Source of the DNA: Sycon ciliatum
Lineage: Eukaryota > Porifera > Calcarea > Leucosolenida > Sycettidae
Direction: 5' to 3'
NCBI RefSeq assembly: GCF_964019385.1
Contig: NC_088643.1
Location: 6,538,495 to 6,602,494 of the forward strand
Length of the DNA: 64,000 nt
Below are positions 3,654 to 58,036 of the stretch, piece after piece. The notes under the pieces were generated by a model. The model ran no database searches. It was not told the origin of the DNA and saw nothing but the letters and a program-made list of their open reading frames with translations. Position 1 is the first letter of the stretch. Every line of letters begins with the position of its first letter. The position numbers were made by a program, and so were the translations under genes.

Positions 3654-6600
3654 TCAGGGAGTGCGCACCGCATCTATCGGGATGAGCACAGTGATAGGTC
3701 GGCGGTATTGCTTCCCTTTCACCTTCACGTCGACAACACGTGTTCTTCCGTCGGTGCCTGGGTAGATCGCTTCGATCCTCCCGAGGGGCCACTGGCCGCG
3801 AGGAGTGTGCGCGTCCAGGACAAGCACCACGTCTCCAATCCGGATGTTGGGAAGGCTCTTCTGCCATCGTTGACGTATGTTCAACTTTGGGACCATCTCT
3901 TGTAGCCAGCGCTTCCAGACCGCGGCTAAACAGCTCTGCAACACCCTCCAGGCTTTGAGGTGGTACGCCTGGCCATCTTCCTCGACCGCGGTCATCACGG
4001 TCGTCGATCCCGCTAGAAAGTGCGAGGGTGTTAGCGGCTCCGGGTCTTGTCCATCTCCACTCTGGGCCGTTAGAGGTCGACGATTGAGCTGAGCCTCAAC
4101 AGTGGTGAAGGCAGTCTGGAGCTCCTCATCAGAACACACAGCATTGTGCAAGATGCCGACCAACGCTCTCTTGGCACACTTGACCATTGCTTCGAAGACC
4201 CCGCCGTGATGCGGTGAGCGTGGCGGATTGAACCTCCACTCCACGCCTTTGCAGGCCATGGTAGCGGCAACCTGGCTGTTCTTGAGGCTTTCGATGGCTT
4301 CTCGTAGCTCACGCTCGGCTGACACAAAGTTGGTACCATTGTCGGACACGACGAGATCCGGTACACCTCTTCTCTTCGCGAACCTGGTGAATGCCAGCAG
4401 AAAGCTCTCCGTGTCCAAGCCATACGCCATCTCAAGATGAACTGCTCTGCTCTGAAGACACGTCATCAAGCAGAGATAGCGCTTTGCTCGACTTCTTCCT
4501 CTCCCTTGCTTCGTCAGAAAGGGTCCGGCGTAATCCACGCCCACCCGACTGAAAGCTCGGAAAGGCTCCTCGGTGCGGAAGTCGGGTAGTGGTGCCATCA
4601 GCTGTTGAGCAGGCTTTGCCCAAATCTTCTTGCAGGCCGTACACTGGCTCCGGTGCCTTTTCACTGCCGCTGGGCCATGTACAATCCAGAACTTCGAGTT
4701 CAGGGTCGACAACAGGTGGTTGACGCCAGCAGTGTGATTGTGAGCCGCATCCTCATGAGCGATTACAAGGGCTGTGACCGGATGCTTCGTTGGCAGAATG
4801 ACGGGCCTACGGAGGCTGCTGGGAAGGTGATGTGCCGTGCTCAACCTGCCGTCCATCCGCAGTAGCTGAGGGTTGCTGTCATCCAGAACCGGTTGTAGGC
4901 GTAGCAGTGGACTTGACGCCGGGATGGGCCGCTGACTTCTACACGCTTCAATCGTCTCATTGAACTCGTCTTGCTGAGCCTTAGCGAACCACACATCTTC
5001 AGCTGACTCCAGTTCAGTAACTGTGAGGGGCTGCACGAGAAACTTCTGCGGTTTTCTCGTACGCTGGTATTCGAGGGACACCATGGTGCCTTCCACCGCT
5101 GCCGATCCTCCAGTCTGCGGTGTGTCCTGCCTGCAGCATTTCCCTTTGCTGGCGTGCCGAAAGAACCTTCTGCACCACGCAGTGACACGCTTCAGGCGAA
5201 TCCAGGAACTGTATCGATCTGGTTGGAGGCGGTCAATGCTCGGACCGGTGGCTAGCAGGGACGATGCTTGGTGGCGCTTGGTTTCTCCAGGCAAATTCGT
5301 CGGCACAACGATGTCACGGTTCGGCCATTCTGACGGCGGCGCTTGCAAGAAACTCGGGCCTTGCCACCACTCGTCACACGCTGCGAGACTTGAAGCTGTC
5401 ATTCCGCGTGTTGGGAGGTCTGCTGGGTTTGACTTGCCGGGCACATGCTGCCACTGCTTACCAGAGGTCACTGTCTGGATCTCCGCTATCTTCACACCGA
5501 CGTCTGTGGCGAACTTGCGACTGTGAGAACGCACCCAGAACAGAACATTCATGTTGTCCGTCCAGAAGAAGTGGTGCGCTACTGGGATGTCAAGAGCTGT
5601 GGCGACCTCCGTGCTCAAACGTACGCCCAGGGCCGCTGCCTTCAACTCGAGCTTCGGAATTGACATCTTCTTGATTGGCGTTGGACGACTCTTTGCCATG
5701 CACAGCGTGACCTTCACTTGTCCGTCTGGGTAGGTGACTCGCACATACGATGCCGCAGCGAACGCTGCATCGGACGCGTCCGTGAAGGTGTGAACCTCAG
5801 TGGCACATGGTTGTGGGAGTGCTCCTGCAAGCTTGAAGCAACGGTCAACTGACACTGAGGTGAGGTCCGGTAGCTCCGCGAACCACGTCTTCCACTTCTT
5901 CACCTCTGTTGTGCTGAGAGGGTCATCCCAACCATGGCCGGCAATACAGGCCTCTTGAAACAGGATCCGCGCTCTGATGGTGAACGGTAGCAGCTGGCCG
6001 CGCGGGTCAAAGATCGTCGCCATCTTCCGCAGGACCGATCTCTTCGTGATGGCATAGTCCTCGGCTGGCGCGTTATACACAAACGTGAACTGATCCTTGT
6101 CTGCCATCCAGGTCACTCCAAGAGTCTTGGAAACAGGCGGTGCGTTGCAAGCCGCGTCTTCTAACATGACCTGGGCTTGGGGTGCTCTGTCTGCTGGTGG
6201 GATAGCGTCGAGCACGGCTGCTGAATTACTGTGCCACTTGCGCAAGTGGAAGCCGCCTTTGCTGAGTGTTGCGTCCAACTTCTGCTGAATCTCTACTGCC
6301 TGGGACTCGTCCTGGGTAGCGTGTAGAAGATCATCGACGTAGAAAGCCTTGTTGACCAGCGCTGGAATGTCGATGCTGTCGTCTCGGTCACTGCTGGAGA
6401 AATCCTCCGCCGTTTGTCGCAACGCTCTGGTGGCGAGGTAGGGCGATGCCTTCATCCCGAAAACCAGTCTGTTGAACTCAAAGACTTCGGGCTCGCTGTT
6501 GTTGTCCTTTCGCCACAGGAATCTGGTGTACTTCCTGTCGTCTGGCCGGAGGCCAACTTGAAGGAACATCTCGCTGATGTCGGCGACGATTGCCACTGGC

Positions 6601-9515
6601 TCCATACAAAACCGTAGCAGGATGTGTACAAGGTCGCTCTGCAGTGGTGGGCCTGCGTGCATCTCCTCGTTGAGGTTACATCCACTCCAAGAGACGGCCG
6701 CGTCGAACACCACCCGCACCTTGGTGGTGACCTTGTCTTGGCGAACGATGGGGAAGTGCGGAACGAACCACTGATCTTCTCCATCCGCAGCTACCTCTTC
6801 TGCTGGCACTTGCCTAATGTACCCTTTTGCCATGTGCGATACAAGGACGCGGTTGTACTCTGCCGCGATGTGCGGCTTCTGTTCAAGACTTCTTTCTTGG
6901 CTACGGAGACGGCGCTCTGCCATTGGCCGGTTGTTCCGCACCTTCGGGCCATCCGCGCTGCGCCATGGGATGCCGACACAGTACCGCCCACCGCTATACG
7001 ACAAGGTCGCGGTCGTCATGGCTTCTGCTTCCTGTTCGGCTGGCGTTCGGTACGTTGGGCTGACTCCGAGACCGACACTCTCGACATTCCATAAGTCTTT
7101 CACCAGGTCGTCCAAGCGATCGTCCGCCTGCTCCACGCTGTCACTCGGTAGACGGACAGCACAATGGGTGGCCACACGAGCTGGGTCAGCCTGAGCTGAT
7201 GTCGGGCCGTAGCACACCCAACCGAGCGGGGTGAGTCGTGCCACTGGACTGCCGGGTGGGCCACATCTCTCCTCCAGAGCCTTGTGGAGCGGCGTAGCAT
7301 TGAGGCCGATGAGGATACCAATCTTCTTACTATGGGAAACTGGGAAGTCGATCTCTCGTAGGTGGTCCCAACTACTCTTGCGCGCGTGCCACTCGATGAT
7401 GTTGGAGTCTCCAGTTACCTGTGGCAAGACCCAAGCGTCCAATGAGGAAACATAGCTCCCGTCGCTGCTGGAGATGGTGACTGTCGACTGGGTTGCATCT
7501 GTGCTGACGCTGTTCCCTCCTAGCGTCTGGACCTTCAGTGGTTGCGATGCTGGCTGGATGCCAAGAAGATCTGCAACGTCCTTCTGGATGTAGCTGGCTG
7601 TCGACCCAGAGTCGAAGAGAGCAGTACACTCGACCACTCGGTCCTCGTTCTTCAGCAATACTGGCACAGTCATGAATGAGATCCCATCATCGATGAACGT
7701 TGTGCTGCTAGACGGGTGCAGGACTGAGTCTGCACTGGCATGGTAGGTCACCTTCTCGCTTGTAGGCGTGCCGTTGGCGGACGCTCCTGCGGTGGTGCGT
7801 GTGTTGGAAGCGCTCCCTTTTTGCTCTATGTGCAGCATAGCATGATGCGTCTTCTGACAGACCGTACACTTGCCGGTGTCACACTTGTACGCTCTGTGCC
7901 CGGGCCGGAAACAGCAGATGCACAGACTACTGCTCTTGACTAGCTGCCAGCGATCAGGGACAGACATCTTCTCAAAGGCAGGACACCGCTCCAGGGGGTG
8001 ACTGCCGCTGCACTTCAGGCACTGTGCACTCTGCTTGGGGGGACCGGCAGCATACGATCGCTCCGCCCCCCTAGGGTTCCATGGTCGGTTCTGAGCTGGA
8101 CGCTGCGGTGGCTTGGACAGTGCAGGCTTCTTCTGATCTTGGTCAGACTCGGTCAGCCTGGCATCAACTTGACGCAGGGTGTGCACTCGCTTCATCAACC
8201 AGGTGGATAGTGTCTTCACGTTCGTTAAAGAATCGTCATGAGACTCGACAAACCTCGTCAACATCCCGCGGGGAAGCTTCTGCGTGATTGCGATGTAAAG
8301 ATCACGGCCTGGTGTTAAACTGGCAGTTGACATGTTCAACAGAACATTCCGCAGTCTGACGGCCAACTGCTGCAGCTTGTCGGAGTCCCTTTCTGAGGTG
8401 ATCCGTGGAAGTGCTAGAAGTTCCTGCTGTTGGCGCTCGAGCTCGCGGTCATTACTCCCATACCACTCATCTAGCTCCTTGAGCGCAGCGCTGTATGCGC
8501 CAGGGCCATCCAGCAGATCCGCAATCAGGTCATCTGCCGTGCCACCTTCTAGAGCTTCCCTTAGACGGGCCATCTTGTAATCTTCTGAGACCATGTGGTC
8601 GTCGTCCACCAGCCTCAGAAACTTCTGCCTCCACCTGATGTAGTTCTTCTGTGAACCATCAAACTTGGGTAGTTCCAGTGGCTGGATCTGATGTTGGCTG
8701 ATACCACTGAAGGGTGCACTCTGAACGCCCTGTACCCAGCTGCTCACTCTGTCAGCTTTTCCACGTGCTGTATCTGAAGCTGCCTGAGGCCACGATCTTC
8801 CCAAATGACCTTGTACTACTGGAGTAATCTCCATACTACTACCACTAGGCTTGTCAAGCCCTACAGCGACCGGAGCTGGCGTCCTGTCAACACCGACAGG
8901 GGTGGACACTTGTGTTTCAGCAGGAACGCTGTCCTGCTGTTCGGTCGCTTTGTCTGCGGTGGAGCCATCTCCATCAAGGCGAGAAACGCCACGGCTCTGG
9001 AGAGTCTCAGACTTGAGCTCCCCGTTCAACCGGTCGTCGGTTTTGAACGCTTGAGCTACAAAACCTGCAGCGGGAGGACCAGCGGAGACGCTTCGCTCCG
9101 TGACTGCCTGGTCGTCATCGTCAGTCTCATCATCAGACGCCGCCATCTTCCGCGCAAACAACGCCAGGCTCTCAGCGCAGGTCTGAAATGACGCGTCAGT
9201 GGACGGCTCCGTCTCCTCCGGACGTCCCTCTGACTCTAGTTCGTCTCCTTCAATGGAAGCCAACTCGGCGTCTAGCTCCAGCTGCAGGATTCTTTTCTGT
9301 CGCTTGAGCTGCTGGACTTCAAACTCCTGCTCCAGCTTTGCTAGCCGCACCGCCGACTTCAACTCCGCTCTGCGACGCCTGGAAGCAGTAGAGGAAGCGG
9401 ACGATGTCAGGGAAGAGACACTACTCTTCGTATCGTCTAGCTCTGCCTCAGGCTCTCTGAACCTTACTGGGGGAACACCTTTCGTGCTCCTGCTACTTTT
9501 TCCAGGTTCCGCCAT
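3654..9515 (-). CDS. BEL/Pao gag-pol polyprotein, intact
   Basis: The polyprotein is about 1953 residues from the Met at 9515 (MAEPGKSS), the first Met downstream of the primer site; the open frame extends back into the LTR, but a start there would lie upstream of the primer site. Domains in order: an acidic and coiled N-terminus; a DUF1759-type gag region around 285-445; cysteine/histidine knuckles around 500-560 (CLKC, CICCFRPGH); an aspartic protease with FDSGSTASYI near 636; reverse transcriptase with FYVDD near 1058; an RNase H region around 1250-1325 (FTDASDAAF); an H2C2 zinc site near 1600; and an integrase with DYAGPF, SDNGTNF and the glutamate in VFEAMVK at about 1660, 1726 and 1773. 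The C-terminal part (GDVVLVLD, GRIEAIYPG) is typical of Pao integrases. There are no internal stops. Fusion of gag and pol in one frame fits the BEL/Pao family. It would act in cytoplasmic particles and in nuclear integration. Confidence 0.95.
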   Translation of the reverse strand: MAEPGKSSRSTKGVPPVRFREPEAELDDTKSSVSSLTSSASSTASRRRRAELKSAVRLAKLEQEFEVQQLKRQKRILQLELDAELASIEGDELESEGRPEETEPSTDASFQTCAESLALFARKMAASDDETDDDDQAVTERSVSAGPPAAGFVAQAFKTDDRLNGELKSETLQSRGVSRLDGDGSTADKATEQQDSVPAETQVSTPVGVDRTPAPVAVGLDKPSGSSMEITPVVQGHLGRSWPQAASDTARGKADRVSSWVQGVQSAPFSGISQHQIQPLELPKFDGSQKNYIRWRQKFLRLVDDDHMVSEDYKMARLREALEGGTADDLIADLLDGPGAYSAALKELDEWYGSNDRELERQQQELLALPRITSERDSDKLQQLAVRLRNVLLNMSTASLTPGRDLYIAITQKLPRGMLTRFVESHDDSLTNVKTLSTWLMKRVHTLRQVDARLTESDQDQKKPALSKPPQRPAQNRPWNPRGAERSYAAGPPKQSAQCLKCSGSHPLERCPAFEKMSVPDRWQLVKSSSLCICCFRPGHRAYKCDTGKCTVCQKTHHAMLHIEQKGSASNTRTTAGASANGTPTSEKVTYHASADSVLHPSSSTTFIDDGISFMTVPVLLKNEDRVVECTALFDSGSTASYIQKDVADLLGIQPASQPLKVQTLGGNSVSTDATQSTVTISSSDGSYVSSLDAWVLPQVTGDSNIIEWHARKSSWDHLREIDFPVSHSKKIGILIGLNATPLHKALEERCGPPGSPVARLTPLGWVCYGPTSAQADPARVATHCAVRLPSDSVEQADDRLDDLVKDLWNVESVGLGVSPTYRTPAEQEAEAMTTATLSYSGGRYCVGIPWRSADGPKVRNNRPMAERRLRSQERSLEQKPHIAAEYNRVLVSHMAKGYIRQVPAEEVAADGEDQWFVPHFPIVRQDKVTTKVRVVFDAAVSWSGCNLNEEMHAGPPLQSDLVHILLRFCMEPVAIVADISEMFLQVGLRPDDRKYTRFLWRKDNNSEPEVFEFNRLVFGMKASPYLATRALRQTAEDFSSSDRDDSIDIPALVNKAFYVDDLLHATQDESQAVEIQQKLDATLSKGGFHLRKWHSNSAAVLDAIPPADRAPQAQVMLEDAACNAPPVSKTLGVTWMADKDQFTFVYNAPAEDYAITKRSVLRKMATIFDPRGQLLPFTIRARILFQEACIAGHGWDDPLSTTEVKKWKTWFAELPDLTSVSVDRCFKLAGALPQPCATEVHTFTDASDAAFAAASYVRVTYPDGQVKVTLCMAKSRPTPIKKMSIPKLELKAAALGVRLSTEVATALDIPVAHHFFWTDNMNVLFWVRSHSRKFATDVGVKIAEIQTVTSGKQWQHVPGKSNPADLPTRGMTASSLAACDEWWQGPSFLQAPPSEWPNRDIVVPTNLPGETKRHQASSLLATGPSIDRLQPDRYSSWIRLKRVTAWCRRFFRHASKGKCCRQDTPQTGGSAAVEGTMVSLEYQRTRKPQKFLVQPLTVTELESAEDVWFAKAQQDEFNETIEACRSQRPIPASSPLLRLQPVLDDSNPQLLRMDGRLSTAHHLPSSLRRPVILPTKHPVTALVIAHEDAAHNHTAGVNHLLSTLNSKFWIVHGPAAVKRHRSQCTACKKIWAKPAQQLMAPLPDFRTEEPFRAFSRVGVDYAGPFLTKQGRGRSRAKRYLCLMTCLQSRAVHLEMAYGLDTESFLLAFTRFAKRRGVPDLVVSDNGTNFVSAERELREAIESLKNSQVAATMACKGVEWRFNPPRSPHHGGVFEAMVKCAKRALVGILHNAVCSDEELQTAFTTVEAQLNRRPLTAQSGDGQDPEPLTPSHFLAGSTTVMTAVEEDGQAYHLKAWRVLQSCLAAVWKRWLQEMVPKLNIRQRWQKSLPNIRIGDVVLVLDAHTPRGQWPLGRIEAIYPGTDGRTRVVDVKVKGKQYRRPITVLIPIDAVRTP

Positions 9516-9579
9516 TTCTCTAATCACTGCACTGGTAGATCTACGAAATGACAACTCTCGAACCGATTCGGATCCACTG

Positions 9580-9597
9580 ATCCGGCTCGAAGGACCA
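9580..9597 (-). promoter_or_regulatory. Primer binding site complementary to tRNA-Tyr
   Basis: On the minus strand TGGTCCTTCGAGCCGGAT begins two bases after the 5' LTR. Its complement matches the known 3' end of eukaryotic tRNA-Tyr (CCGGCTCGAAGGA plus CCA), so tRNA-Tyr is the predicted primer. Confidence 0.85.
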
Positions 9598-9599
9598 GA

Positions 9600-10104
9600 T
9601 GTTTGGATGCAAGCACCCAAACTACCAACAATAGCTCATAAACTCACACTGGAGTTATTGTCTTACTTCCATACTTTTACAGTCTTGATAATCATGAGCA
9701 ACAACAGAGAAGGAAAAAGGAATCTGACTTGAAAACAACTAAAAGCACAACAGCAACAGCTGAGAAAACTAAAGTCAAAAGTCCGACTCAAAACGGAACT
9801 ATAAGCCGGAACTGTAGTGTAGCAACATAATGCATAGATACACGGGAAAAGAGCCGGCACACGCACGCAGCGCACGCGCAAGTGAAAGTCTAGACATCAG
9901 AGCATGAATACATGAATGCGTGACAGCAAGCGCGCCTCAGGCACCAAGACACAAGATCACTACAGACATAACAGAGAGATGAAACGCACACAGCAGATCC
10001 TAGACAAACACAAACTGGAGCATGCAGGCAACTGAACACAAGTCGGACAGAGCTGGATAGTAATTATAACACTGAATGCATGAGAGAGTAGAATCACCTG
10101 AACA
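9600..10104 (-). repeat. 5' LTR of the BEL/Pao element (promoter-bearing)
   Basis: The 505-bp LTR is a near-perfect copy of 2875-3382. As the upstream LTR on the minus strand it should carry the promoter. The primer site follows it directly. Confidence 0.95.
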
Positions 10105-23470: not shown

Positions 23471-24062
23471 TTGGATCCTTCTCTTAGTCTTAGCTTAGCC
23501 TGTCAAACCCTACAAATTACAATAATAACAATACTATTATTAGTATTACATGTATGTATTGGGTTGTACACCGGCTCGCAGTTTTTGATCAAGAATCGTA
23601 GCGAAAGCTCGCGGCCTCGCTGCTCCAGCTCGAGCCGCAGACCCGCGGTCACTATGGTAATGATGACGTTTCAAGTCGCGGATGACCACCAGCGGAGTAG
23701 CGGAGCCGCATTGGAGCCCGGCCCTAAGCGCGATACCACATAGCATAGGGATGGAGGTCGGGGACGTGGTGGCTGCACTTTCATTTCTACTAGACTACAA
23801 TCGAGCACGCGTACCTGGAAAACTGGATGAAGGCGAAAAGTCCTGCCCTGTCTTTGGCCCGCGTATATGGTACACCAGGTATATATTAAAGCGCGATTAA
23901 TTATTTTGACTGATCACACTCGAACTCTAGTACACGTACCTGTGTGGTATTCCTGCCTTGTTAGTATTCGATCAACTGTAGCTGACTACTAAAAAATTAA
24001 TAATAATCTCGTACTCGTACGATCGTAGTCCTTAAAGTGGATTGTTCCAACTACCAAAATAA
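23471..24062. other. No gene seen
   Basis: AT-rich and mixed sequence. Frames up to 90 residues lack domains or splice support. Confidence 0.4.
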
Positions 24063-24129
24063 CAAAAATTGGTTGTGAGCAACACTGGCTCACACTCAAA
24101 TAACTGCTTTTCACCAGAAAAATACTATA

Positions 24130-24170
24130 TTTCAACGTTTCGGTCATGAAATAACCATCATCAGGAATGA
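24130..24170 (-). ncRNA. Hammerhead-like motif at the Penelope 3' end
   Basis: On the minus strand CTGATGA (24158-24164) is followed by a GGTTA/TGACC hairpin with loop TTTCA and then GAAAC. One extra U precedes stem II and stem III is not clear. Penelope-like elements are known to carry hammerhead motifs in their terminal repeats. It is probably a degenerate or non-canonical version. Confidence 0.45.
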
Positions 24171-24519
24171 AGTGGGCACACCGGTTAGGATGGGTTAATA
24201 TATGAGGAGCGCTGCGAACTGATAACAAATCACACCTGCATGCACTATGACGAGAGAGAGAACAAAAGGACAAAACATCACCAAAAAAAACCAGGTATAG
24301 AAATAACGCAATACGCGACAACTCTAAATATGGCACAGGTACAAGCAACAAACAGAATGTACATGTGCACTAGGTGCGTGCAGACATGTAATTGCAGGCG
24401 CTAGCAACAACAGTAGTAGTAACAGTGCACTAGTGCAAGGGGTGCAAAAACCACCACTATCCAGGAAGAGCGAGTATCAGGGCCAGAAATATGTACAAGG
24501 CGGTACTTCACCAGAGAAT

Positions 24520-26061
24520 TCACAGGAGGTCCCATCCTGCGTTATTGTTTATGCTGGGACTCGTGTCGCGAATTTGTATTGCTTCGCGTATTCTCCTCCT
24601 GGCCCGATCCGACTCGGTGGCAAGGACGCGAACCTCTGTGAATGCCGACTCGCCAAGCGGCAGTACCTCGCCGCCATGGTGAAGTCGGTAGTGCTCGCCC
24701 AGGGCTTTTCCAGACGTCTTGTTGCGTGAGTTATCATTGTGTTCTTTTGTTCGCGTTGCTACACTACGGCCAGTCTCTCCAACATACTTCTCCGAGCACT
24801 TGCAGGTCAGACGATAAACCACGTTGCGTCTTGTGCATTCTACCTCGCTCGATTGGCATGCAACGCAGGCGGCTTTAGGCCTTCCTCGTCGCCTCGGGGC
24901 AGCGGGATCCACCCACTTACGGCAGCAAGGTCCAGTGAGGCTGGACTTAGTGACGCTGTTGGAAAGCCTTGCATTCTTGTAGATTATCTGTACATTTAGA
25001 TTGTATTTGTTTAGAAGACGGTGGACCCTGTAGTGGATGGCATCCGTTTTGAATGGTAACTTCAACGTGGATCGATAGTCTTTCTTTTGTTTAGCAGGTC
25101 GTCTGGCTCGTTCATGAGCAGTCGCGATAACTTTGTCAGGAAAGTTGTTGAATTTTAATGTGTCAATAACCTTTTGCTCACTTCGCTGGCGGGCTGCAGG
25201 ATCAGAGGAAAGGCGGGCCGCGCGGAGGAATTCCGAAGACGCGATGGCGAGTTTTTGCTGTTGCGGAACGCACGAGTTGAAGTCTGAGACGAGGCCACTG
25301 TGGCAAGCTTTGCGGAACAGCTCGAATGATATTGCGCCCTCGGAGGAGACATGAATAGTCGTGTCCATAAAGTCCACCGACCCAGTTTCCTCCGAAGATT
25401 GATACGTGAACTTGATGCTCGCATTGGCGGTATTGAAGTATGCAATCAGCTGGCGGAGAAGCGCGGCCCCCAGTGTCCACAGCATAATGATGTCATCAAT
25501 ATAACGCTTGTAGAGTACGGGAGCACCAGGCGAGTTTAGCAACAGCGAGGTTTCGAGGTCATGCATGAAGATAATCGCAAACGGGGGCGCTAGGTTGTTA
25601 CCCATGGCGATGCCTTCCCTCTGGTGGTAGACCTTCTCACCAAATCTGAAGTAATTGGATCTTAGAACGAAGGTTAACAGCTCTTCGATCTGCTCCACGC
25701 TTAAACCAAATGTGTCAACAGACTCGATGTGCTGCTGCAGGACTCTAGCGACCGCCTCCACCCCCTCAGCGATAGGGATACTTGGGTAAAGAGCGACCAC
25801 GTCCATTGTAACGATGATGGTCCCCGCTGGGGCTTGTAGGTCGGGATACACTTGCCGGATATCCTCCAGTGCTTCCAGCGTGTTTTTAAGATGTGCTGGG
25901 ACATATTTCAGGCATTGGTTCAGTATACGCTCCAGGACAATAGAAATATTGGTCACCGGGCTATCAACAGCTGACACAACTGGCCGAAGCGGTACCGTGG
26001 CTTTGTGGTCTTTAGGTAGGCCATACATCTCCGGAAACCTGTTGTCGGCCACCAGCTTCAT
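24520..26061 (-). CDS. Penelope-like reverse transcriptase with GIY-YIG endonuclease (5' truncated)
   Basis: The frame holds 513 residues. It enters within the RT: YGLPKDHK near 13, motif A TMDVVALYPSIP with D87, motif B GIAMGNNLAPP near 150-160, and motif C YKRYIDDIIMLW with IDD at 188-190. A basic linker with CVACQSSEVEC leads to a GIY-YIG nuclease near 413-510 (VVYRLTCKCSEKYVGETGR, with the conserved acidic REAIQI). No stops interrupt it. The N-terminal RT portion is missing, so it is not autonomous as it stands. Activity of this family: RT plus endonuclease-assisted retrotransposition in the nucleus. Confidence 0.9.
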   Translation of the reverse strand: MKLVADNRFPEMYGLPKDHKATVPLRPVVSAVDSPVTNISIVLERILNQCLKYVPAHLKNTLEALEDIRQVYPDLQAPAGTIIVTMDVVALYPSIPIAEGVEAVARVLQQHIESVDTFGLSVEQIEELLTFVLRSNYFRFGEKVYHQREGIAMGNNLAPPFAIIFMHDLETSLLLNSPGAPVLYKRYIDDIIMLWTLGAALLRQLIAYFNTANASIKFTYQSSEETGSVDFMDTTIHVSSEGAISFELFRKACHSGLVSDFNSCVPQQQKLAIASSEFLRAARLSSDPAARQRSEQKVIDTLKFNNFPDKVIATAHERARRPAKQKKDYRSTLKLPFKTDAIHYRVHRLLNKYNLNVQIIYKNARLSNSVTKSSLTGPCCRKWVDPAAPRRRGRPKAACVACQSSEVECTRRNVVYRLTCKCSEKYVGETGRSVATRTKEHNDNSRNKTSGKALGEHYRLHHGGEVLPLGESAFTEVRVLATESDRARRRIREAIQIRDTSPSINNNAGWDLL

Positions 26062-26107
26062 AAGTAAAAAATTAGTTGCTCACAACCAATTTTTTACTTA
26101 TGAAGCT
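26056..26107. repeat. Palindrome at the Penelope 5' truncation point
   Basis: AGCTTCATAAGTAAAAAATT is answered by AATTTTTTACTTATGAAGCT around the centre GTTGCTCACAACC. It looks like a snap-back at the insertion boundary. Confidence 0.8.
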
Positions 26108-26690
26108 GCGTGATGCGTCCTACAAGATTTTATACCAAAATAACAGTTTATTTAATTTATTAAATTTACTACTTCGGGACAGTCTGTTCATGGTTTTTAT
26201 TTTGGACTCGTTCTCTACGCTTGCGATAATTTAGCGGCAATTCTAATGTTGTAGCGTTGTTCCCTTGTAATTTAGTGGAATCTGTATTGAGTAACTGAGT
26301 TTTACGTTTCGTTACATTGTCGACAGATCTCCTGTGTACCGGTTTTGTGGCACAATGAATAGCCATTTGTCGTCTCCGTTCTTGTGCAATAATGCATAAT
26401 ATGTAGGTTGGTTCTCTTCATGTTATTGTGACCTACTTCATAGATGTTGGTTGCCTTGTTGCTTTCTCTCCCCTCTCCTCTCACCCTAGCCATTCTGCAT
26501 AAGCGAAGCTGTGGACCCAGCATACTGCTGCTACACTGCAACGCGGGAAATAGATTTTTAAAATAATAATGTTCCAAATAGGAACACACGCTTCTTGCCG
26601 AACTTGACACTTGACTGACTCACGACTGCCATCCAGAGCACATGAGGAGCACGTCGCACCTTCCACTCGGCAAACCTGCAAGAAAGCATC
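26108..26690. other. No gene recognised; contains an inverted short dispersed repeat
   Basis: Minus-strand frames of up to 102 residues overlap here but match nothing I know. Around 26598-26645 the sequence is the inverted counterpart of the repeat at 42325-42419 and 11688-11790. Confidence 0.45.
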
Positions 26691-26694
26691 ACTC

Positions 26695-26756
26695 CCTACT
26701 CAATACACAGTGTTTCGGGGAATTCACCCCTCATCAGGGTTGAGCTTGAGTAGGCT
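26695..26756 (-). ncRNA. Hammerhead ribozyme, complete catalytic core
   Basis: On the minus strand CTGATGA (26731-26737) is followed by stem II GGGG/CCCC around TGAATT, then GAAA, then stem III ACA/TGT around CTG, with H17 = A at 26704. The flank TTGAGTAGG (26695-26703) pairs exactly with 26746-26754, or as TTGAG with a CTCAA nearer the core after a two-base CC bulge. All core residues are canonical. The UA cleavage step is allowed but weaker than UC. No parent element is obvious. Confidence 0.7.
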
Positions 26757-26776
26757 GAGGAAGATTGTGCCTGAAA

Positions 26777-27137
26777 AGCACCACTTATAATGCTCTCCAG
26801 GCCAAACCATCACCAGGGATACAAACTTACAGGGACACTTTGTTTCCAGCGCGACAAACACCTCGTGAAGCTCCAGGTAGCAGCGTGAGTCAGAGTCGCT
26901 CATGGAGTTGTGCTAAACAAACGTGCGACTAGTTGTTGGAGGTGACAGCGTTGCGAACAGATACTGGCTCTCAACGTCTGTTTAGCACAGCTCCATGAGC
27001 GACTCTGACTCACGCTGCTACCTAGTAGTACCTGGAGCTTCACAAGGTGTTTGTCGCGATGGAAACAAAGTGTCCCTGTAAGTTTGTATCCCTGGTGATG
27101 GTTTGGCCTGGAGAGCAGTAAATAAGTGGTGCTAGCA
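26777..27137. repeat. Long inverted repeat, arms about 150 bp
   Basis: The arm from AGCACCACTTAT (26777) to about 26925 is matched in reverse by 26982-27137 with a few changes and one small insertion. The loop is about 55 bases. A transcript would fold into long double-stranded RNA. Confidence 0.85.
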
Positions 27138-39692: not shown

Positions 39693-41135
39693 GGCGGCCA
39701 GTTTGGTGACGCCTTGGATATCCGCATGGAGGGAATTCCAGAGAACTGCGCCAGCATGTGTCACCAATTTGGTAGAATGTGCAGAAGCAGCGGCAGGGAC
39801 AATAAGCAGGTCACTGTTGCCTCCTCGAGTTCTTCGTGACGAAAGAGGTCGAAAAAAATTTCAAATAGTATACTTCCTGAAGAATTTAGACAACGCAATA
39901 TAAAGCAGAGCAAGTTAAGTAGAAGGGTAGCGCGCAAGGGAGAGACATGTACACGCTCAAGCAGCGTAACAGTGGGGGTCCATGGGGGCACTTTACATAC
40001 AGCATGCAGTGCGCGCTTGAAGAGCCTTTCCAGACGGAGCTCCTGGTGAACAGATAGATATGGGGCGTAAGCATAGGATGCATACAGAAACTCAGGCAGC
40101 ACAAAGCATTTGAAGTAGCAGATACAACACGTTGAACCATTGTCTGCCAGCACATTGACGTGTCAAAATGTAAGCCTAGATACTTGGCCGATGGTACCAT
40201 CGGCAGATCTTGACTATTGCATGTCACGCGTAGGGCAAAGGGTGGTGCTCTGTGAGGAGGGATTGGTAGGATTTGTGTTTTCGTTTCATTCAGAAATTAA
40301 GCCAAGCTGTCGTAGCCAGTCAGACAGGTGTTGTACTGCACCGGACAGTCGCTGAGCAACAATTGCCGGTGCCACGGCACTGGCTCGTAATGAGATGTCA
40401 TCTGCAAACTGTAACACCGTATGGCCTCACCACATGAGGTATTTCTCGAACATACACAACGAAGAGCAATGGACCCAGCACTGATTCTTGCGGAACACCA
40501 CAGCTACTGGAGTAGGCAGCACTTTTGCTTGGGCCAATCTGGACGTACTGTTGACGATCGGTCAGGTAGTGGGCCACCCACTGCAGAGCAACGCCGCCTA
40601 TGCCGAGAGCGTAGAAGTCACTAACTAGAGTCTGATGCTGCACTTAGTCGAAGGCTTTCGACAAGTCTACAAAAGCGACTCCAGTGTAGAGGCGTGCCAC
40701 TTGTGCCTGTTGAATTTGCTCTACCGTTAACACTAGGGCATCAGAGGTGGAGTGGTGGCTACGAAAACCAAATTGTTCCATTGGTAGAAGATCTTGGCTC
40801 TCCAGAAAATCAGACAGTTGCTCATGAACAATCCGTTCAAGGATCTTGGAGACCACAGGGAGTAGGGAAACTGGTCTATAGTTCTTAGGTTGGCTGGGGT
40901 CACCGGCTTTGAACAGTGGGCGGATGCATGCCACTTTCATTGATTCTGGGAATTTCCCCTCCCTCAGTGATCTGTTGAACAGCAAAGTCAGCGATGGGGC
41001 CAGGATATCCCCACACAAACGGAGAAGGACAGTTGGTATACCATCGCTTCCAGTTGCTTTAGTTGAATTCACTGATTGCAGCAGCGTAGTACTAGTACTA
41101 ACATCACGTAGTTGGGTCTGTGAAGAGAGAGGTGA
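39650..41135 (-). pseudogene. Decayed CR1/Jockey-like LINE reverse transcriptase
   Basis: Minus-strand RT motifs appear in order across frames: KATGSDGIPTVLLRL, NYRPVSLLPVVSKILERI, GFRSHHSTSDAL, motif A FVDLSKAFD, motif B GVPQESVLGPLLF (Glu where Gly is usual), FADD, and the C-terminal LWNSLHADIQGVTKLAAFK. A TAA stop directly follows SKAFD, and frameshifts occur before FADD and again further on. There is no endonuclease domain, so it is 5' truncated near 41135. Inactive. Confidence 0.85.
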
Positions 41136-41235
41136 ATGCGTGAGGTAGTAGGTGGTGTTTCTTTGGCTTCCCTTACACGTGTGAATGCTAGGCTTCGGCG
41201 GGTTTTGCCTGTGAAATCATGGAATTATGCTTTCA

Positions 41236-41252: not shown

Positions 41253-41704
41253 TGCTCGCAAGGTCCTCCTATTATGCTTTGGGATGCGGGGATTCATATT
41301 CACTTTGTTGTACTTATGCAAGTTATGGAGCCTCAAAGTTCGGAAAATTGTGCCTTTTTCGTACTTGCAAGTGGCCATAAGTGCAACAACATGTTACATG
41401 AGTATTCCCATATCAAGGTGACCATGCATGCTAGCCTAGAGATCAACATAGAAAAGAGAAAACATTACTTATGGTTGATAATTATGGTGGTAAAGACACA
41501 CCTGGCAATATGGCGGTAACCACACGCCTGCCCACACACGCTCTCTAGGCTGCAAAGTTCTGGCACAGAGCTCTCCTTCTCACCACCACCACCATCAGTT
41601 CGCGCCTGGTGCCTGGTCGATGCATGGCTGGCGGTATCCGGCATAGCAGGCTGGTACATCAAGTAGCGCATGGCACATAGATGATGACACAGCAACGACA
41701 TAGC

Positions 41705-41750
41705 TCGATTGCGAAGTACGTTTCGTCCCCGCTGGACTCATCAGGCAATC
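41705..41750 (-). ncRNA. Type I hammerhead ribozyme of retrozyme family 2
   Basis: Stem I GATTGC (41745-41750) pairs perfectly with GCAATC (41706-41711). CTGATGA is at 41738-41744. Stem II GTCC/GGAC closes loop AGCGG. GAAA is at 41721-41724. Stem III is ACG with loop TA and CTT; the partner copy at 42024-42031 has the matching CGT. Cleavage would follow C at 41712. One stem III mismatch is the only defect. Confidence 0.8.
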
Positions 41751-42006
41751 TTCTTCTTGGATGTCTTCATACGGAGCTTGACTCGGGAGAATGAAATTGA
41801 AGACACCACTGCAGCTGTACTTATGGTTGATAAATATGGTGGTAAAGACACACCTGGCGATATGGCGGTAAACACACGCCTGCCCACATACGCTATCTAG
41901 GCTGCAAAGTTCTGGCACAGAGCTCTCCTTCTCACCACCACCACCATCAGTTCGCGCCTGGCGCCTGGTCGATGCATGGCTGGCGGTATCCGGCATAGCA
42001 GGCTGG

Positions 42007-42038
42007 AGTCCAGCGGGGACGAAACGTACGTCGCAATC
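42007..42038 (+). ncRNA. Truncated hammerhead copy
   Basis: Stem II, GAAA, a perfect stem III (ACG, TA, CGT), cleavage C at 42032 and the stem I 3' strand GCAATC are intact, but the CTGATGA segment is replaced at the inversion junction. It is not catalytic. Confidence 0.75.
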
Positions 42039-42324
42039 GAGCTATGTCGTTGCTGTGTCATCATCTATGTGCCATGCGCTACTTGATGTACCAGCCTGCT
42101 ATGCCGGATACCGCCAGCCATGCATCGACCAGGCACCAGGCGCGAACTGATGGTGGTGGTGGTGAGAAGGAGAGCTCTGTGCCAGAACTTTGCAGCCTAG
42201 AGAGCGTGTGTGGGCAGGCGTGTGTTTACCGCCATATTGCCAGGTGTGTCTTTACCACCATATTAATCAACCATAAGGACAGCTGCATTGGTGTCTTCAA
42301 TTTCATTCTCCCAAAACATTACTT

Positions 42325-42419
42325 GTGTGCTCTGGATGGCAGTCGTGAGTCAGTCAAGTGTCAAGTAAAGTCGGCGGAATAGCGCGAGCTCCGGTGTGGG
42401 GAGCAAACCCTTTTCTTAC
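42325..42419 (+). repeat. Short dispersed repeat bounded by AAAACATTACTT
   Basis: This 95-bp segment starting GTGTGCTCTGGATGG is bracketed by AAAACATTACTT (42313-42324 and 42420-42431), the same 12-mer that borders the retrozyme. Relatives are at 11688 and, inverted, 26598. Confidence 0.65.
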
Positions 42420-42431
42420 AAAACATTACTT

Positions 42432-42640: not shown

Positions 42641-43118
42641 CTATTTATTCCCGTAGCTATGCAGAAGACGTTACTTAAGTAACGTCTGGCGCTAGCCAGG
42701 GTCCACACAGCTTTAATTCCCGTAGCTATGCAGAAGACGTTACTTCAGTAACGTCTGGTGCTAGCCAGGGTCCACACAGCTTTAATTTGGTGTTTGTTTG
42801 TTTGTTTGTGTGTTTGTGTGTTTGTGTCACGCCTGGCGCTATTCCGTATCTGTCCCGTACCGTACCATCAAGCACAGCTGGCCACATACAGCTGGCCGCA
42901 ATATTCAAATTGGGCTTTCAAAGGGAATATCATAACGTGAAGCAACTTGGAAGAATGAGTATGAATGCGATGGATATGGGGGAATTCATGTAGGGCGATA
43001 GTGCGGGTTCGATTCCCAGGTTATGCCTAAAAATAGGAGAATTGAAAAATGTATAGCATCCCTATGCTTTCTTTGCCTAGGTCATCAAGGCGGTAGACGG
43101 TGTCGTATTACCCTCGAC
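42641..43118 (+). repeat. SINE-like repeat S, copy 1
   Basis: It begins with a 64-66-bp tandem duplication (CCGTAGCTATGCAGAAGACG to CACACAGCTTTAATT) that contains the palindrome GACGTTACTTAAGTAACGTC. It continues through GT-rich sequence to GCGGGTTCGATTCCCAGG, which resembles a tRNA T-arm/B box, and a 3' part with CCTATGCTTTCTTTGCCTAG. It is related to 43185-43370 and 45040-45745. No clear A box is seen. Confidence 0.6.
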
Positions 43119-48837: not shown

Positions 48838-48995
48838 GGTTCAGCATCGGTAGCACAGTGGCTGGGTGGTAAGGAAGAGTGACTGAGATTCACATGGTTG
48901 TGGGTTCAAATCCCATCTTGTGTATTTCTGCTTTCTTCAAAATTTCTTTTTCTAAGTTGGAGAGAAAATTTCTAAGTCCAAGAAATTCTAAGGAG
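48838..48995 (+). repeat. tRNA-derived SINE, copy 1
   Basis: A-box-like TAGCACAGTGG and a perfect B box GGGTTCAAATCCC about 50 bases downstream form a pol III promoter as in tRNA SINEs. A tail with TTTCTTTTTCTAAGTTGGAG follows. The second copy is inverted at 49930-50105. Confidence 0.75.
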
Positions 48996-54440: not shown

Positions 54441-57314
54441 CTAGTACCAATCAACCACTTGAACAGCTAAGGAAGATCGGTAGGAGTCCTTATCCAGAAG
54501 GTGTTGGTAGGCATCCGTACGGTATGGTCGCGGATAGCGCTTTATCCGAGTCACAAGATGCCGGAGAGATGTGTGCGCGTTGACGGCATGGACGAATGCA
54601 GAGACGTCACGGTCGGATACTGCCTCCTGCATCACCAAGATGCGGGCAAAATCGCAGTCCAGCTGCGCTAGATCAGGCCATGCACTGCGGAGGTTATCTG
54701 CTAGGATGTTCATACAAAGAAGCAACCCTGGCTGGAGGACGTCTAAGGATGATAAGTGTGTGGCGTGACGCAAGGCCTTGCAGATACCCTGCAAATTCTG
54801 ATCACCGATGCCCTCGCAGTGGAGAAGACGGAACACTTTGAGGCAGCGAACATCGGCAAGTGCCTCAGCCAGGAGCATTGCAGGGTTGCGATCGCCATGG
54901 TCGGTGGTTGTAGCCGTTCCACCGTGTTCAGCATGCGGCGGTTGTGTGCTGACCGGGTGTGAGGGAATACTGGCATCGGTGAGATCACAATGAATCAGCT
55001 GGATCACCGCCAGGTGCATGTGTGATTGCTTCAAAACTGCCAGGATCTGCTGCCACTGACAGGTACATCTATGGATGCTTAGCTCTGTAATATTCTGACA
55101 CTTCAGTAGTGACAGCGGAAACACCATGGGAGTAAGGGCATGTAGCCATCCACGAACGAGCACTATCTTCACGCTGGTGCAGTGCCCATCGACGGCGACG
55201 TCATAAGCACGGATGACGGCCGGATGGTAATGACCATAGATCTCTGTATTCACGCACTGAAACGCGGCAGCTAGGCTGGACATGGGTTGATGGTGATCGT
55301 CACGGTGATGGTATCGCTCGGCATAGCTGAGCACTGCTAGATCTAAGCTGCGCAAGTGGGCCATGGAGAAACGAGTGATTTCCTTGTGAAATGGACTCTT
55401 CACCGATGTTGGATTACCACCGCGCATAGGAGTATGTAGAGACTGTGCAAGGACGTCTTTGCCCATGCATCGCAGAGCATCAGCCAGTGTATCGTACGTT
55501 GCATCAGGGCAACGCTCTACCCACGTCAGCAAAGTCGCTCTCAAGAACTGTTCACCGCTATCGGGTCGGCTGTACTTGCTACGGTTCTCCACATAATGCA
55601 CGCTGCTTCTTCCGTTCAGGCTGTCGGACAGAAGCTCTTCTGCAAGACGGCGGCCTTCGTAGTCGTCCAAACCGGCACTCAACGGGTCAAGCATATCCAG
55701 TGGGAAGACAGCTTGTTCCGCGGCTGCATCATTTGGGTCATCCCATTCCTCCTCCTCGTCGTTCACAGCCGCTCCTTGTCCGTCAATGGACTTTTTCCGC
55801 GTCAGAAGACCGTTGATCAAACACTCAGCATTCTCCTTGTCCAACTGAGCTGTCAACAGCATCCAGAAAGTCCGCAAGTGGTTGGTTTCGGGGCCCAGCA
55901 ACTCCACCAAGCGGACAATCCGTGCCGGTGTTGCTGCCTTCTTCACAGCCACGTAGCGAGCTGCCAGCGATTCTTGTAACGTCAAATGGCTGAACATCCA
56001 CAGTCTGCTGTCATCGCGACTGCTACTGTCGGCTAGCACGAGAAGGCCGAGCGCTTTAGCTTCCCCGGTGATCGCACGCATCTGCAAATCAGTATCGGTG
56101 AAAATGAGTCGCCGTTGAGTGAGCATGTTGAAAGCAAAATTTCCAAGATCTAGGATTAGAGCTTGGACGCCTGGAGAAATCTCATTCCAACTCTTGTACG
56201 ACTCACCGGTATTACGCTCGGCAACTTGGATGATCATCATGTCAAAGATGTCCGAGAGGCATTTTGGCAGCATGCCATTACGGCAGTGGAACATCTTGCA
56301 CGTTTGCATGGCTAGGAATGGCGTGGCCATCATGCTAGCAAGGTGTTGATCCTGTCGTACTGCTTCTACCAGTATCGATGCTTCGTCCACTGACCTCAGC
56401 ACCTTGCCAATGTACTCCTCAACATCTTCTTGCCGAAAACCGACAAGTTCCACTCGGCGATCAAACTGCTTTTTTTCACTCAGGCTCAGCAGTTCTACAC
56501 ACGGCCGTGACGTCACCACCAGACGCAGTCCCTTCACGTTTGACCCATTGACAATATCCTTAACAAAGCCGCTGCAGTCGCCAAGGCGGATCTCGTCAAG
56601 TCCATCGAGTACAAGGCATACTCGGTGAGCTTGTTCGCGAACAAAATCATCGATGCTTTTGCGCTCCTCGTCCGTAAACACTCCTCGCTCTCCCACGCCA
56701 AGCAGAGCGCATATGTCAGTTGCTTCTCTCACCTCCCTGTTGCGTAGCTTCCGCGCTATCACCAGGTCAAACAATGTCCACATTTCATTCCGAGCCCATT
56801 TCAATGGCGCCACTCTAGTAAAGACGAACGTCTTGCCACAACCCGCGCTGGCAACAGCCACTATGCGATACGTTCGCCCACCACTGGAGAACTCCTTCAT
56901 CTGCTTCTCGTTCAGATCGAAGAGACTTTCAATTAAGATGTTCTCCAAACTATCAGCTGCCTTTGTGAAGACGTGTTCTACGCGCCACATGTCGCCTGTT
57001 GAATCGAAACCGGCATCGACGAACTCCTGCCGAAGCTCTGGTCTAGACAAGATCATCAGTCGTATTTGTACATCTGAAACGCTTGGCTCCTTCATCCCTT
57101 CCTCCACCATGCCTTCTCCCATGTCCACCGTTGCGCCAACATATTCCCTAACTAACATTTTTTTCAATCTGCGCACTGCCTCGGGAACGGTGCTGCTTGC
57201 TTCGGCGCAAGTCGCCTCTCTGCCACCGGACTCGCTAGCACTTCTCTCATCGCATCCAGTCTGGGAAAGAGCTGATAGTGCTCCGCGCACGTCAGCGGTC
57301 TCTTTGCCTGCCAT
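54441..57314 (-). CDS. NACHT-LRR (NLR) protein, intronless
   Basis: The protein has 957 residues from Met 57314. The N-terminal 140 residues are charged and helical, without a recognisable Death, CARD or pyrin domain. NACHT ATPase: Walker A VASAGCGKT at about 154-162, Walker B VCLVLDGLDEI at about 232-242, and sensor LRLVVTSRP at 263-271. A winged-helix/HD2-type motif, WMFSHLTLQESLAARYVA, is at about 439-456. The C-terminal third has leucine-rich repeat-like segments (ITELSIHRC, LKVFRLLHCEGI, LSSLDVLQPGL). NLRs are cytosolic pattern receptors that oligomerise through NACHT when ligand is sensed by the LRR. All core ATPase motifs are intact. Lack of introns could reflect retroposition or a lineage habit. 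The start could lie upstream only if another exon exists. Confidence 0.9.
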   Translation of the reverse strand: MAGKETADVRGALSALSQTGCDERSASESGGREATCAEASSTVPEAVRRLKKMLVREYVGATVDMGEGMVEEGMKEPSVSDVQIRLMILSRPELRQEFVDAGFDSTGDMWRVEHVFTKAADSLENILIESLFDLNEKQMKEFSSGGRTYRIVAVASAGCGKTFVFTRVAPLKWARNEMWTLFDLVIARKLRNREVREATDICALLGVGERGVFTDEERKSIDDFVREQAHRVCLVLDGLDEIRLGDCSGFVKDIVNGSNVKGLRLVVTSRPCVELLSLSEKKQFDRRVELVGFRQEDVEEYIGKVLRSVDEASILVEAVRQDQHLASMMATPFLAMQTCKMFHCRNGMLPKCLSDIFDMMIIQVAERNTGESYKSWNEISPGVQALILDLGNFAFNMLTQRRLIFTDTDLQMRAITGEAKALGLLVLADSSSRDDSRLWMFSHLTLQESLAARYVAVKKAATPARIVRLVELLGPETNHLRTFWMLLTAQLDKENAECLINGLLTRKKSIDGQGAAVNDEEEEWDDPNDAAAEQAVFPLDMLDPLSAGLDDYEGRRLAEELLSDSLNGRSSVHYVENRSKYSRPDSGEQFLRATLLTWVERCPDATYDTLADALRCMGKDVLAQSLHTPMRGGNPTSVKSPFHKEITRFSMAHLRSLDLAVLSYAERYHHRDDHHQPMSSLAAAFQCVNTEIYGHYHPAVIRAYDVAVDGHCTSVKIVLVRGWLHALTPMVFPLSLLKCQNITELSIHRCTCQWQQILAVLKQSHMHLAVIQLIHCDLTDASIPSHPVSTQPPHAEHGGTATTTDHGDRNPAMLLAEALADVRCLKVFRLLHCEGIGDQNLQGICKALRHATHLSSLDVLQPGLLLCMNILADNLRSAWPDLAQLDCDFARILVMQEAVSDRDVSAFVHAVNAHTSLRHLVTRIKRYPRPYRTDAYQHLLDKDSYRSSLAVQVVDWY

Positions 57315-58036
57315 GACTGCAAGCTAGAGACGCAGCAGCGGCGTTCTACTACTCAGAGGTTAGCGAAGAAAACACTATTGTCAGCTCATTCTCCCTGGCC
57401 CTGTGCATGTGTTTTCAAATAAAAATAATACAGGTCAGACCTCGCTATAACGACCCCCGATATAACATAAACCTCACTATAACGCCCTATCAGGTTGATC
57501 TCCTATTTGAACATGTGCATATGTGTGTGTATGATGTGCCCTAGCTCACTTATAATATTATTATTATTATGTTATACACGTAGATCATGTCCATGATGCC
57601 TTTCCTCTGCGCAGGTCCACCGCACTATTGTTTTTAAGATTAACATCATTATTACTTCTGCATATGCATTACATACTATGATCATGCTGGCTTCATCCCT
57701 TATCTCCTAAGCTACCGCCCCCCCCCCCCCCCCCCCCCTCCGGTGCGTCTGCCCAGTGTTGACTCCGAGACCCACGGTCGGACGAGCTGCCCAGGCCTCA
57801 CCACCACTGCCGTTTCCGTGCTGCCTTCTCGATACATACGTATGTACACTGTATATAATGTGCACATTCACATGTCTGAAGGTTTGTGGTTTTTCAATAA
57901 AATAAATAAATAAAAAATAAAAAAATAACGTACGAAATGTGAATGGCCCTGCCGAAACCGCATCACTTCCCGAGTTTATTCATGCTACGGTCTGTTTTCT
58001 CTTGCTTATTTGGCCGCAGACAGATGGAATAGCGCT
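57315..58036. other. Upstream region of the NLR gene, no other gene
   Basis: It contains a poly-C run (57718-57738) and, at 57433-57480, a pogo-like terminus (CAGGTCAGACCTCGCTATAA) without a clear partner. The NLR promoter should lie at its left edge. Confidence 0.4.

What the first reader, a model, noticed from the sequence alone, without database searches (positions are those of the whole stretch)
41459..42324. Retrozyme-like element with near-intact hammerhead and 12-bp target duplication
Seen directly: a 352-bp monomer repeated head to tail (41471, 41823), an inverted partial monomer joined at 42002/42003, AAAACATTACTT at both outer edges, and a type I hammerhead with 6-bp stem I, GTCC/GGAC stem II and all core bases. 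The stem III mismatch in one copy is perfectly paired in the other. Retrozymes with tandem hammerhead monomers are known in plants and animals. This particular sequence, and its inverted-monomer architecture, may be undescribed.
Basis: partly seen in the sequence, partly recalled or inferred. Interest (0 to 1): 0.9.

Follow-up and report, generated by a model that had tools for sequence, protein, structure and literature searches.

The report
Sponge retrozyme with Penelope insertion footprint
A small non-coding jumping element with a self-cutting RNA, found in a calcareous sponge, is inserted with the same unusual two-armed footprint as the protein-coding Penelope elements of the same genome, which points to Penelope enzymes as the helper that copies such elements into DNA.

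Summary
Window 41459-42324 is a retrozyme ("RZ1"): 352-bp tandem monomer, type I hammerhead, 12-bp target duplication. The genome is Sycon ciliatum, a calcareous sponge. RZ1 was mapped at 40 loci, mostly 97-99% identical; 94 of 99 hammerhead units are letter-perfect. The "inverted partial monomer" is the usual form: 28 of 40 loci have two head-to-head arms. Arms end outward at one of two RNA sites 36 nt apart (58 of 61 ends); of 25 two-arm copies counted, 22 have one of each, 3 have one odd end, none two alike. Inner ends are random. Units of both arms share private variants. Penelope-like elements (PLEs; RT plus GIY-YIG) of this genome, one in the window, show the same: ends 36 nt apart, one of each in 15 of 16, 12-13-bp duplications. 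So does a second, unrelated 479-bp retrozyme (18 of 18), whose fragment shares RZ1's target duplication in the window. Best reading: PLE protein cuts both target strands and starts reverse transcription at two fixed sites on one, probably circular, retrozyme RNA. Cleavage, circles and helper activity were not tested.

The parts
41459..41470 (.). target site duplication, copy 1 (AAAACATTACTT)
41471..42006 (-). RZ1 left arm (RNA sense on minus strand): full monomer 41471-41822 plus partial unit 41823-42006; outer 3' end at site A (r242)
41707..41750 (-). type I hammerhead ribozyme; predicted cut between 41713 and 41712 (after GUC in family-typical copies; this copy reads UUC)
   Evidence: family copies reach the gathering score; cut site from the established motif, not measured
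42006..42312 (+). RZ1 right arm, head-to-head with the left arm; outer 3' end at site B (r280)
42006..42032 (+). truncated hammerhead of the right arm, stem III intact
   Evidence: 17.9 bits, model 12-39
42313..42324 (.). target site duplication, copy 2, shared by RZ1 and the RZ2 fragment
42325..42419 (+). fragment of a second retrozyme family (RZ2, 479-bp monomer), single arm, about s61 to s155, 3' end at its site A
42420..42431 (.). target site duplication, copy 3
24064..26132 (-). 5'-truncated Penelope-like element of a young family: long arm 24064-26047 ending at PLE site A (376), short inverted arm 26075-26132 ending at site B (414), a 26-nt piece between them
24520..26079 (-). PLE open frame, 519 aa: GIY-YIG endonuclease (above Pfam cut-off) and reverse transcriptase (RVT_1, E 9.6e-5, below its cut-off)
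24117..24164 (-). minimal hammerhead-like motif of the PLE pseudo-LTR (CTGATGA...GAAACGTTG); no Rfam match
24052..24064 (.). PLE target duplication (13 letters, the last shared with the element)
26133..26145 (.). PLE target duplication, other copy
26602..27133 (.). older, diverged RZ2 insertion, head-to-head arms 26602-26906 (-, 90%) and 26924-27133 (+, 79%); decayed RZ2 hammerhead at 26697-26737 (-)

Best explanation
The element is one insertion of a non-autonomous, non-coding retrozyme that uses Penelope-like (PLE) reverse transcriptase/endonuclease in trans. Shown from sequence: arrays of a 352-nt monomer with an intact type I hammerhead; dispersed young insertions, most with 12-14-bp target duplications; head-to-head arms whose outer ends lie at two fixed RNA sites (A, about r242; B, about r278), one of each in 22 of 25 two-arm insertions; random, independent inner ends joined with microhomology; variants shared by the units of both arms; the same anatomy in a PLE family of this genome and in a second retrozyme family. 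Inferred: transcripts cut themselves and are closed to 352-nt circles; a PLE protein (perhaps a dimer) makes a staggered double cut with 12-nt 3' overhangs, and each overhang primes reverse transcription, one at A and one at B, on one circular RNA; each polymerase may run round the circle many times (longest arm 4914 nt, about 14 rounds), and the two cDNA ends are then joined.
For: Hammerhead: (94 of 99 units letter-perfect). Dispersal. Outer ends: 58 of 61 at A or B (two spans chosen after seeing the ends, 13.6% of the monomer; binomial P 1.5e-46); two-arm insertions 22 of 25 A/B, 3 of 25 with one odd end, none A/A or B/B. Inner ends uniform (61 ends, KS p 0.68); the two inner ends of an insertion are unrelated (27 insertions, KS p 0.80), against snap-back; shared letters at 25 joins 2.04 nt on average against 0.67 by chance, 0 of 2000 simulations, 2 further joins have 3 and 9 extra nt. 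Target duplications: 23 of 36 are 12-14 bp. One template per insertion: r269C in all units of 13 arrays, in none of 20, mixed in 0; a deletion at r269 in 18 of 18 covering units of both arms of L026 and in no other locus. PLE family 1 of the same genome: ends near 378/414, A/B in 15 of 16 two-arm insertions, duplications of 12-13 bp in 5 of 14 copies tested, 6 more in TAA microsatellites, window PLE among the 5. RZ2: 18 of 18 A/B, 35 nt apart, 12-13-letter duplications in L086 and L088. Published: a purified PLE protein cuts and extends both strands and starts at two adjacent internal sites that correspond to the genomic 'tail' (PMC11167929).
Against: No sequence similarity between RZ1, RZ2 and the PLEs was found, and the letters round sites A and B are not more alike than chance, so how PLE protein would recognise retrozyme RNA is not shown. 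13 of 36 RZ1 insertions lack a clean 12-14-bp duplication; 3 of 14 PLE copies gave none (for one, L066, the wrong left edge was tested). One PLE (L071) and three RZ1 copies have an odd outer end. Single-arm RZ1 copies exist (11 of 36). Some variants are mixed within arrays. In the published assay starts did not differ between strands, and hammerhead mutants did not affect insertion. No RNA data: circles and cleavage are inferred. A homogeneous multimeric transcript could also give homogeneous arrays. The predicted circular fold of RZ1 is not more stable than shuffles (z +1.7). Ends of LINEs in this genome were not examined as a control.
Confidence: 0.85

Rival explanations
1. Retrozyme moved by PLE machinery, but from a linear multimeric (uncleaved) transcript; the hammerhead plays another part.
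For: In the published PLE assay hammerhead mutants did not affect insertion and unprocessed RNA was taken to be the main substrate (PMC11167929). Homogeneous source arrays would give homogeneous copies.
Against: Variants are mostly all-or-none within arrays: over the non-CpG variants seen in 3 or more loci, 26 homogeneous and 13 mixed cases against 2.2 and 71 in shuffles; 6 of the 13 mixed cases are one length change in a GGT run, counted twice.
Confidence: 0.2
2. Insertion by a LINE-type element with twin priming, not PLE.
For: L1 twin priming also gives inverted parts (recalled); a LINE-like RT fragment lies in the window (40644-41216).
Against: L1 twin priming, as I recall it, inverts the 5' part of one RNA and gives no second fixed 3' end. 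Two ends 35-36 nt apart, one of each, occur in the PLEs themselves. LINE insertion ends in this genome were not examined.
Confidence: 0.06
3. Palindromes made by snap-back self-priming of one cDNA (proposed for PLE inverted repeats in bdelloids, PMC3846280).
For: Head-to-head arms; the published proposal (passages).
Against: Snap-back predicts matching inner ends; the circular distance of the two inner ends has mean 85 where chance gives 88 (27 insertions), and each arm has its own fixed outer end.
Confidence: 0.03
4. Satellite DNA or foldback DNA transposon without RNA intermediate.
For: Tandem arrays, inverted arms.
Against: 12-14-bp duplications at dispersed sites, two fixed outer ends with random inner ends, intact ribozyme in 94 of 99 units.
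Confidence: 0.01

Closest known systems
Metazoan non-LTR retrozymes (Cervera and de la Pena 2020, PMC7229834; abstract, outline, passages and Discussion read)
   Same: Type I hammerhead in a short tandem monomer, dimers to multimers, duplications longer than 4 bp, no protein gene.
   Different: G+C above 50% (52.6%) where below 50% is described; head-to-head arms with two fixed ends; 'inverted' and 'head-to-head' do not occur in that paper's main text, nor do 'sponge' or 'porifera'.
Penelope-like elements (Frangieh 2024 PMC11167929, parts 1-2 of 4 read; Arkhipova 2013 PMC3846280, passages read)
   Same: Head-to-head arms, a 30-40-bp tail in one of them, both target strands extended, hammerhead, partial tandems.
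   Different: RZ1 and RZ2 have no protein gene and no sequence similarity to the PLEs of Sycon; duplications in the rotifer passages were 8-10 bp, here 12-13 bp.
Plant LTR retrozymes (PMC4918200, search listing only; description from passages of PMC7761336)
   Same: Hammerhead-bearing, non-autonomous, circular RNA.
   Different: Type III hammerhead, LTRs, primer binding site, 4-bp duplications.

Membership tests
metazoan non-LTR retrozyme | canonical type I hammerhead | tested here: met
   (RZ1); RZ2's motif is complete by eye but has no Rfam match at E 1 or less
metazoan non-LTR retrozyme | short tandem monomer (150-450 bp), dimer to multimer | tested here: met
   RZ1 352 bp, about 18 units in the longest insertion; RZ2, 479 bp, is slightly longer
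metazoan non-LTR retrozyme | target duplication longer than 4 bp | tested here: met
   12-14 bp in 23 of 36
metazoan non-LTR retrozyme | no protein gene | tested here: met
   longest stop-to-stop frame in a tetramer 164 aa (RZ1) and 90 aa (RZ2); these frames were not compared with protein families
metazoan non-LTR retrozyme | no LTR, primer binding site or polypurine tract | not tested
   no search for these was run
metazoan non-LTR retrozyme | low G+C (below 50%), a described trait rather than a criterion | tested here: not met
   RZ1 52.6%, RZ2 54.1%, window 47.2%
metazoan non-LTR retrozyme | self-cleavage and small circular RNA | not testable with these tools
   no RNA data
mobilised by PLE (works like a PLE insertion) | head-to-head arms with a tail of 30-40 nt in one arm | tested here: met
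   36 nt, 22 of 25 two-arm copies counted
mobilised by PLE (works like a PLE insertion) | same duplication length as PLEs of the same genome | tested here: met
   (5 unambiguous PLE cases)
mobilised by PLE (works like a PLE insertion) | shared RNA signal at the initiation sites | tested here: inconclusive
   no similarity above chance; AC-rich hairpin loop CAACC at r236-240
PLE (is itself one) | RT plus GIY-YIG open frame | tested here: not met
   no frame longer than 164 aa; no similarity to PLE

The most novel reading that the evidence does not exclude
PLE protein acts as a dimer on one small ribozyme-made RNA circle: the two target-strand ends each prime at their own fixed site 36 nt apart, run in rolling-circle fashion round the same circle and meet head-to-head. 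This would be the general way in which animal retrozymes, of any sequence, are copied into genomes.
Probability: 0.5. Interest if true: 0.88.

Novelty: new variant of a known kind. Interest (0 to 1): 0.77.

Why it matters
Which enzyme moves animal retrozymes has been open: the 2020 papers name PLEs as strong or likely candidates, and one says that the repeats show no conserved motif to deduce the helper (PMC7229834 and PMC7761336). The footprint found here (two fixed ends 35-36 nt apart, one per arm, 12-bp duplication) is shared by two unrelated retrozymes and a PLE family of one genome. It gives a test that can be run on any animal genome and in an existing in vitro PLE assay. It also adds a sponge to the hosts of retrozymes, as far as the searches go.

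Tried and rejected
Genome-wide count of the hammerhead by pattern: asked, never answered, so no total copy number is given. Sequence similarity between retrozymes and PLE: none; A/B site windows not above chance (best RZ2 against PLE1 site A, 14 of 28, fraction 0.065). Rfam: no hammerhead match for the PLEs and none for RZ2 at E 1 or less, although RZ2's motif has a 6-bp stem I, a 4-bp stem II and all core letters in 12 of 12 units found in four loci. Rfam miRNA hits in palindromes and microsatellites were set aside as chance. Structure of the circle: no excess stability. Solved structures for the PLE protein by sequence: none at E 0.001 or less.

Rows dropped: of the 40 RZ1 loci mapped the end count used 36; left out were L017 (same flanks as L016, a duplicated segment), L021 and L045 (one end beyond the fetched stretch) and L039 (two pieces on one strand). 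In one search L017 stands in place of L016. Extra pieces in L013, L027 and L033, which belong to neighbouring copies or were not placed, were not counted. In one search the PLE L071 (one end B, the other at 267) was not in the list of pairs; it is counted here as the miss in 15 of 16. PLE copies with only one outer end in hand (such as L051, L052, L053, L059, L067, L069, L073) are not in the 16. Only PLE family 1 was counted; of the other three families single ends were looked at by eye. Tables come from a limited number of scored candidates, and those of 15, 95 and 100 were also cut, so counts from them are of listed rows. In one search two of 53 listed RZ2 ends were neither A nor B; 16 insertions had two listed ends, all A/B, and 21 had only one listed end (2 of these odd); L085 and L088, read from letters, make 18.

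Full report
What is there. The stretch 41459-42324 holds a 352-bp monomer in tandem (one full and one partial unit), joined head-to-head with an inverted arm of 307 nt, between two copies of AAAACATTACTT. On the minus strand of the left arm lies a type I hammerhead, 32.6 bits against Rfam's 34-bit threshold, E 3.3e-4 for the whole window. The window copy has one private change in stem III; the copy in the inverted arm is intact there but truncated. In six other loci 36 units reach the threshold, each with 35.4 bits, and of 99 units found in the arms of the 40 loci (up to 7 differences allowed) 94 are identical letter for letter.

Whose genome. The held genome has 538 Mb. Lengths of its contigs equal those of records that carry Sycon ciliatum proteins similar to the window's NACHT gene (best 79% identity). 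It is a calcareous sponge. A literature search for hammerhead ribozyme plus Porifera plus retrotransposon gave no paper, and the main text of the 2020 retrozyme paper has neither 'sponge' nor 'porifera'.

The family. The monomer has 182 matches; 40 of 1327 candidates were scored, so this is a lower bound; listed matches are mostly 97-99% identical, some less. I fetched 39 further loci and mapped all 40 in RNA-sense coordinates, r1 being the first base after the predicted cut. In 28 of 40 there are two head-to-head arms. Each arm has one outer (3') end and one inner (5') end. In the 36 insertions counted, 58 of 61 outer ends lie at r230-250 (site A) or r273-287 (site B); medians of the paired ones are 241.5 and 278.5. 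Of 25 two-arm insertions 22 have one A and one B end, three have one odd end (L013, L041, L046), none has two of a kind; 11 insertions have a single arm, 6 with B and 5 with A. Inner ends are spread evenly (61 ends, KS p 0.68), and the two inner ends of an insertion are unrelated (27 insertions, KS p 0.80). They are joined with more shared letters than chance (25 joins, 2.04 against 0.67; two more have 3 and 9 extra nt). Exact flanking duplications are 12-14 bp in 23 of 36 insertions, which fits a 12-bp stagger plus 0-2 shared letters (a few of the 23 lie in simple repeats); one of 17 bp lies in a microsatellite, seven are shorter (7-11 bp), five have none of 7 or more.

One template per insertion. 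Units of one arm differ by 0.57% on average (191 pairs), units of opposite arms of an insertion by 0.81% (129), units of different insertions by 1.43% (7434). The variant r269C is in all units of 13 arrays, in none of 20, mixed in none; seven of the 13 have it in both arms. A one-base deletion at r269 is in 18 of 18 covering units of L026, both arms, and in no other locus; L043, L040 and L044 have private changes in all covering units of both arms. Not all variants behave so: r267G, r231A and r236G are each mixed in two arrays, r240A in one, a GGT-run length change in three and a CpG site in four. Both arms were therefore most likely copied from one kind of monomer, most simply one circle; a homogeneous multimeric transcript is not excluded.

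The protein-coding elements. An open frame of 519 aa lies in the window at 24520-26079, with a GIY-YIG domain and a weak RT match below Pfam's cut-off (the same for a 906-aa frame of another copy). It belongs to a young family (up to 99% identity, several open frames of about 906 aa), and groups at about 73, 65 and 55% identity also occur (83 of 3262 candidates scored). A hammerhead-like motif lies in the pseudo-LTR of all four groups: CTGATGA...GAAACGTTG in three, CTGAAGA...GAAACGTTG in the 73% group; Rfam does not recognise it. Mapping 30 loci of family 1 (the window's copy among them) showed the retrozyme's anatomy: head-to-head arms, outer ends at 376-384 (A) or 412-417 (B), medians 378 and 414, i.e. 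36 nt. Of 16 two-arm insertions with both ends in hand 15 have one of each; L071 has one odd end. Of 14 copies tested for duplications five have 12-13 bp outside microsatellites, among them the window's own PLE (24064-26132), six lie in TAA repeats and three gave none, one of these because the wrong edge was tested.

A second retrozyme. The 95 bp between the second and third AAAACATTACTT belong to another tandem family with a 479-bp monomer. Its own hammerhead is GCUCAA-CUGAUGA-GGGG UGAAUU CCCC-GAAA-CACUGUGUA|UUGAGC, identical in 12 of 12 units found in four loci; Rfam does not list it. It has no similarity to RZ1 or to the PLEs. Its arms end at s154 or s189, 35 nt apart, one of each in 18 of 18 two-arm insertions with both ends known. 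L086 and L088 have 12-13-letter duplications; L085 and L090 lie in microsatellites. In the window a single-arm RZ2 fragment and RZ1 share the same 12-bp duplication, which suggests that the same staggered cut was made twice.

How it works. Frangieh and colleagues (PMC11167929, parts 1-2 of 4 read) showed for a lizard PLE protein that both target strands are cut and extended and that reverse transcription starts at two adjacent internal sites in an AC-rich stem-loop, which explain the genomic tail. Arkhipova and colleagues (PMC3846280, passages) described head-to-head pseudo-LTRs with a 31-bp tail on one of them. The retrozymes show this footprint without any PLE sequence. Site A of RZ1 lies at an AC-rich hairpin loop (CAACC, r236-240), a resemblance only. 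I infer that PLE protein works on retrozyme RNA in trans, most likely on circles, with two primers on one template. Circles, cleavage and binding are not shown here.

What is new. Cervera and de la Pena proposed PLEs on grounds of shared hammerheads, tandem form and co-occurrence, and wrote that the repeats show no conserved motif that could help to deduce the helper. In the listings of searches, and in the passages read, I saw no report of head-to-head arms, paired ends or a PLE tail in retrozymes. Only an open-licence library was searched; of the earlier papers on PLE hammerheads the 2014 one is not held and the 2017 one was not looked up. G+C above 50% departs from the published description of metazoan retrozymes.

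Noticed in passing
42325-42419 and 26602-27133: Fragments of a second, 479-bp retrozyme family with its own hammerhead that Rfam misses; the copy at 26602-27133 is an old head-to-head insertion.
   Followed up: yes
24064-26132: Young 5'-truncated Penelope-like element with 13-letter target duplication and one A and one B end.
   Followed up: yes
3654-9635 (-): Open frame of 1993 aa that by eye looks like a BEL/Pao-type retrotransposon polyprotein (recalled motifs, no family search).
   Followed up: no
39761-41216 (-): LINE-like reverse transcriptase remains (RVT_1, 4.5e-13 for 40644-41216; the rest by eye).
   Followed up: partly
54441-57323 (-): NACHT-domain gene, 960-aa frame; 79% identical to a Sycon ciliatum protein, one of a large family.
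   Followed up: partly
42644-42781: Two tandem 69-bp units with an internal palindrome; their AAGACGTTACTT is 2 letters from the retrozyme's target duplication.
   Followed up: no
L054, L061, L062, L063, L074, L076, L085, L090: Many PLE and RZ2 insertions lie in TAA microsatellites, as if these were favoured targets.
   Followed up: no
L016 and L017: Two retrozyme copies 258 kb apart on C8 share flanks and structure: a duplicated segment rather than two insertions.
   Followed up: partly
48853-48924 (+): Weak tRNA match (29.8 bits, threshold 29), perhaps a tRNA-derived repeat.
   Followed up: no
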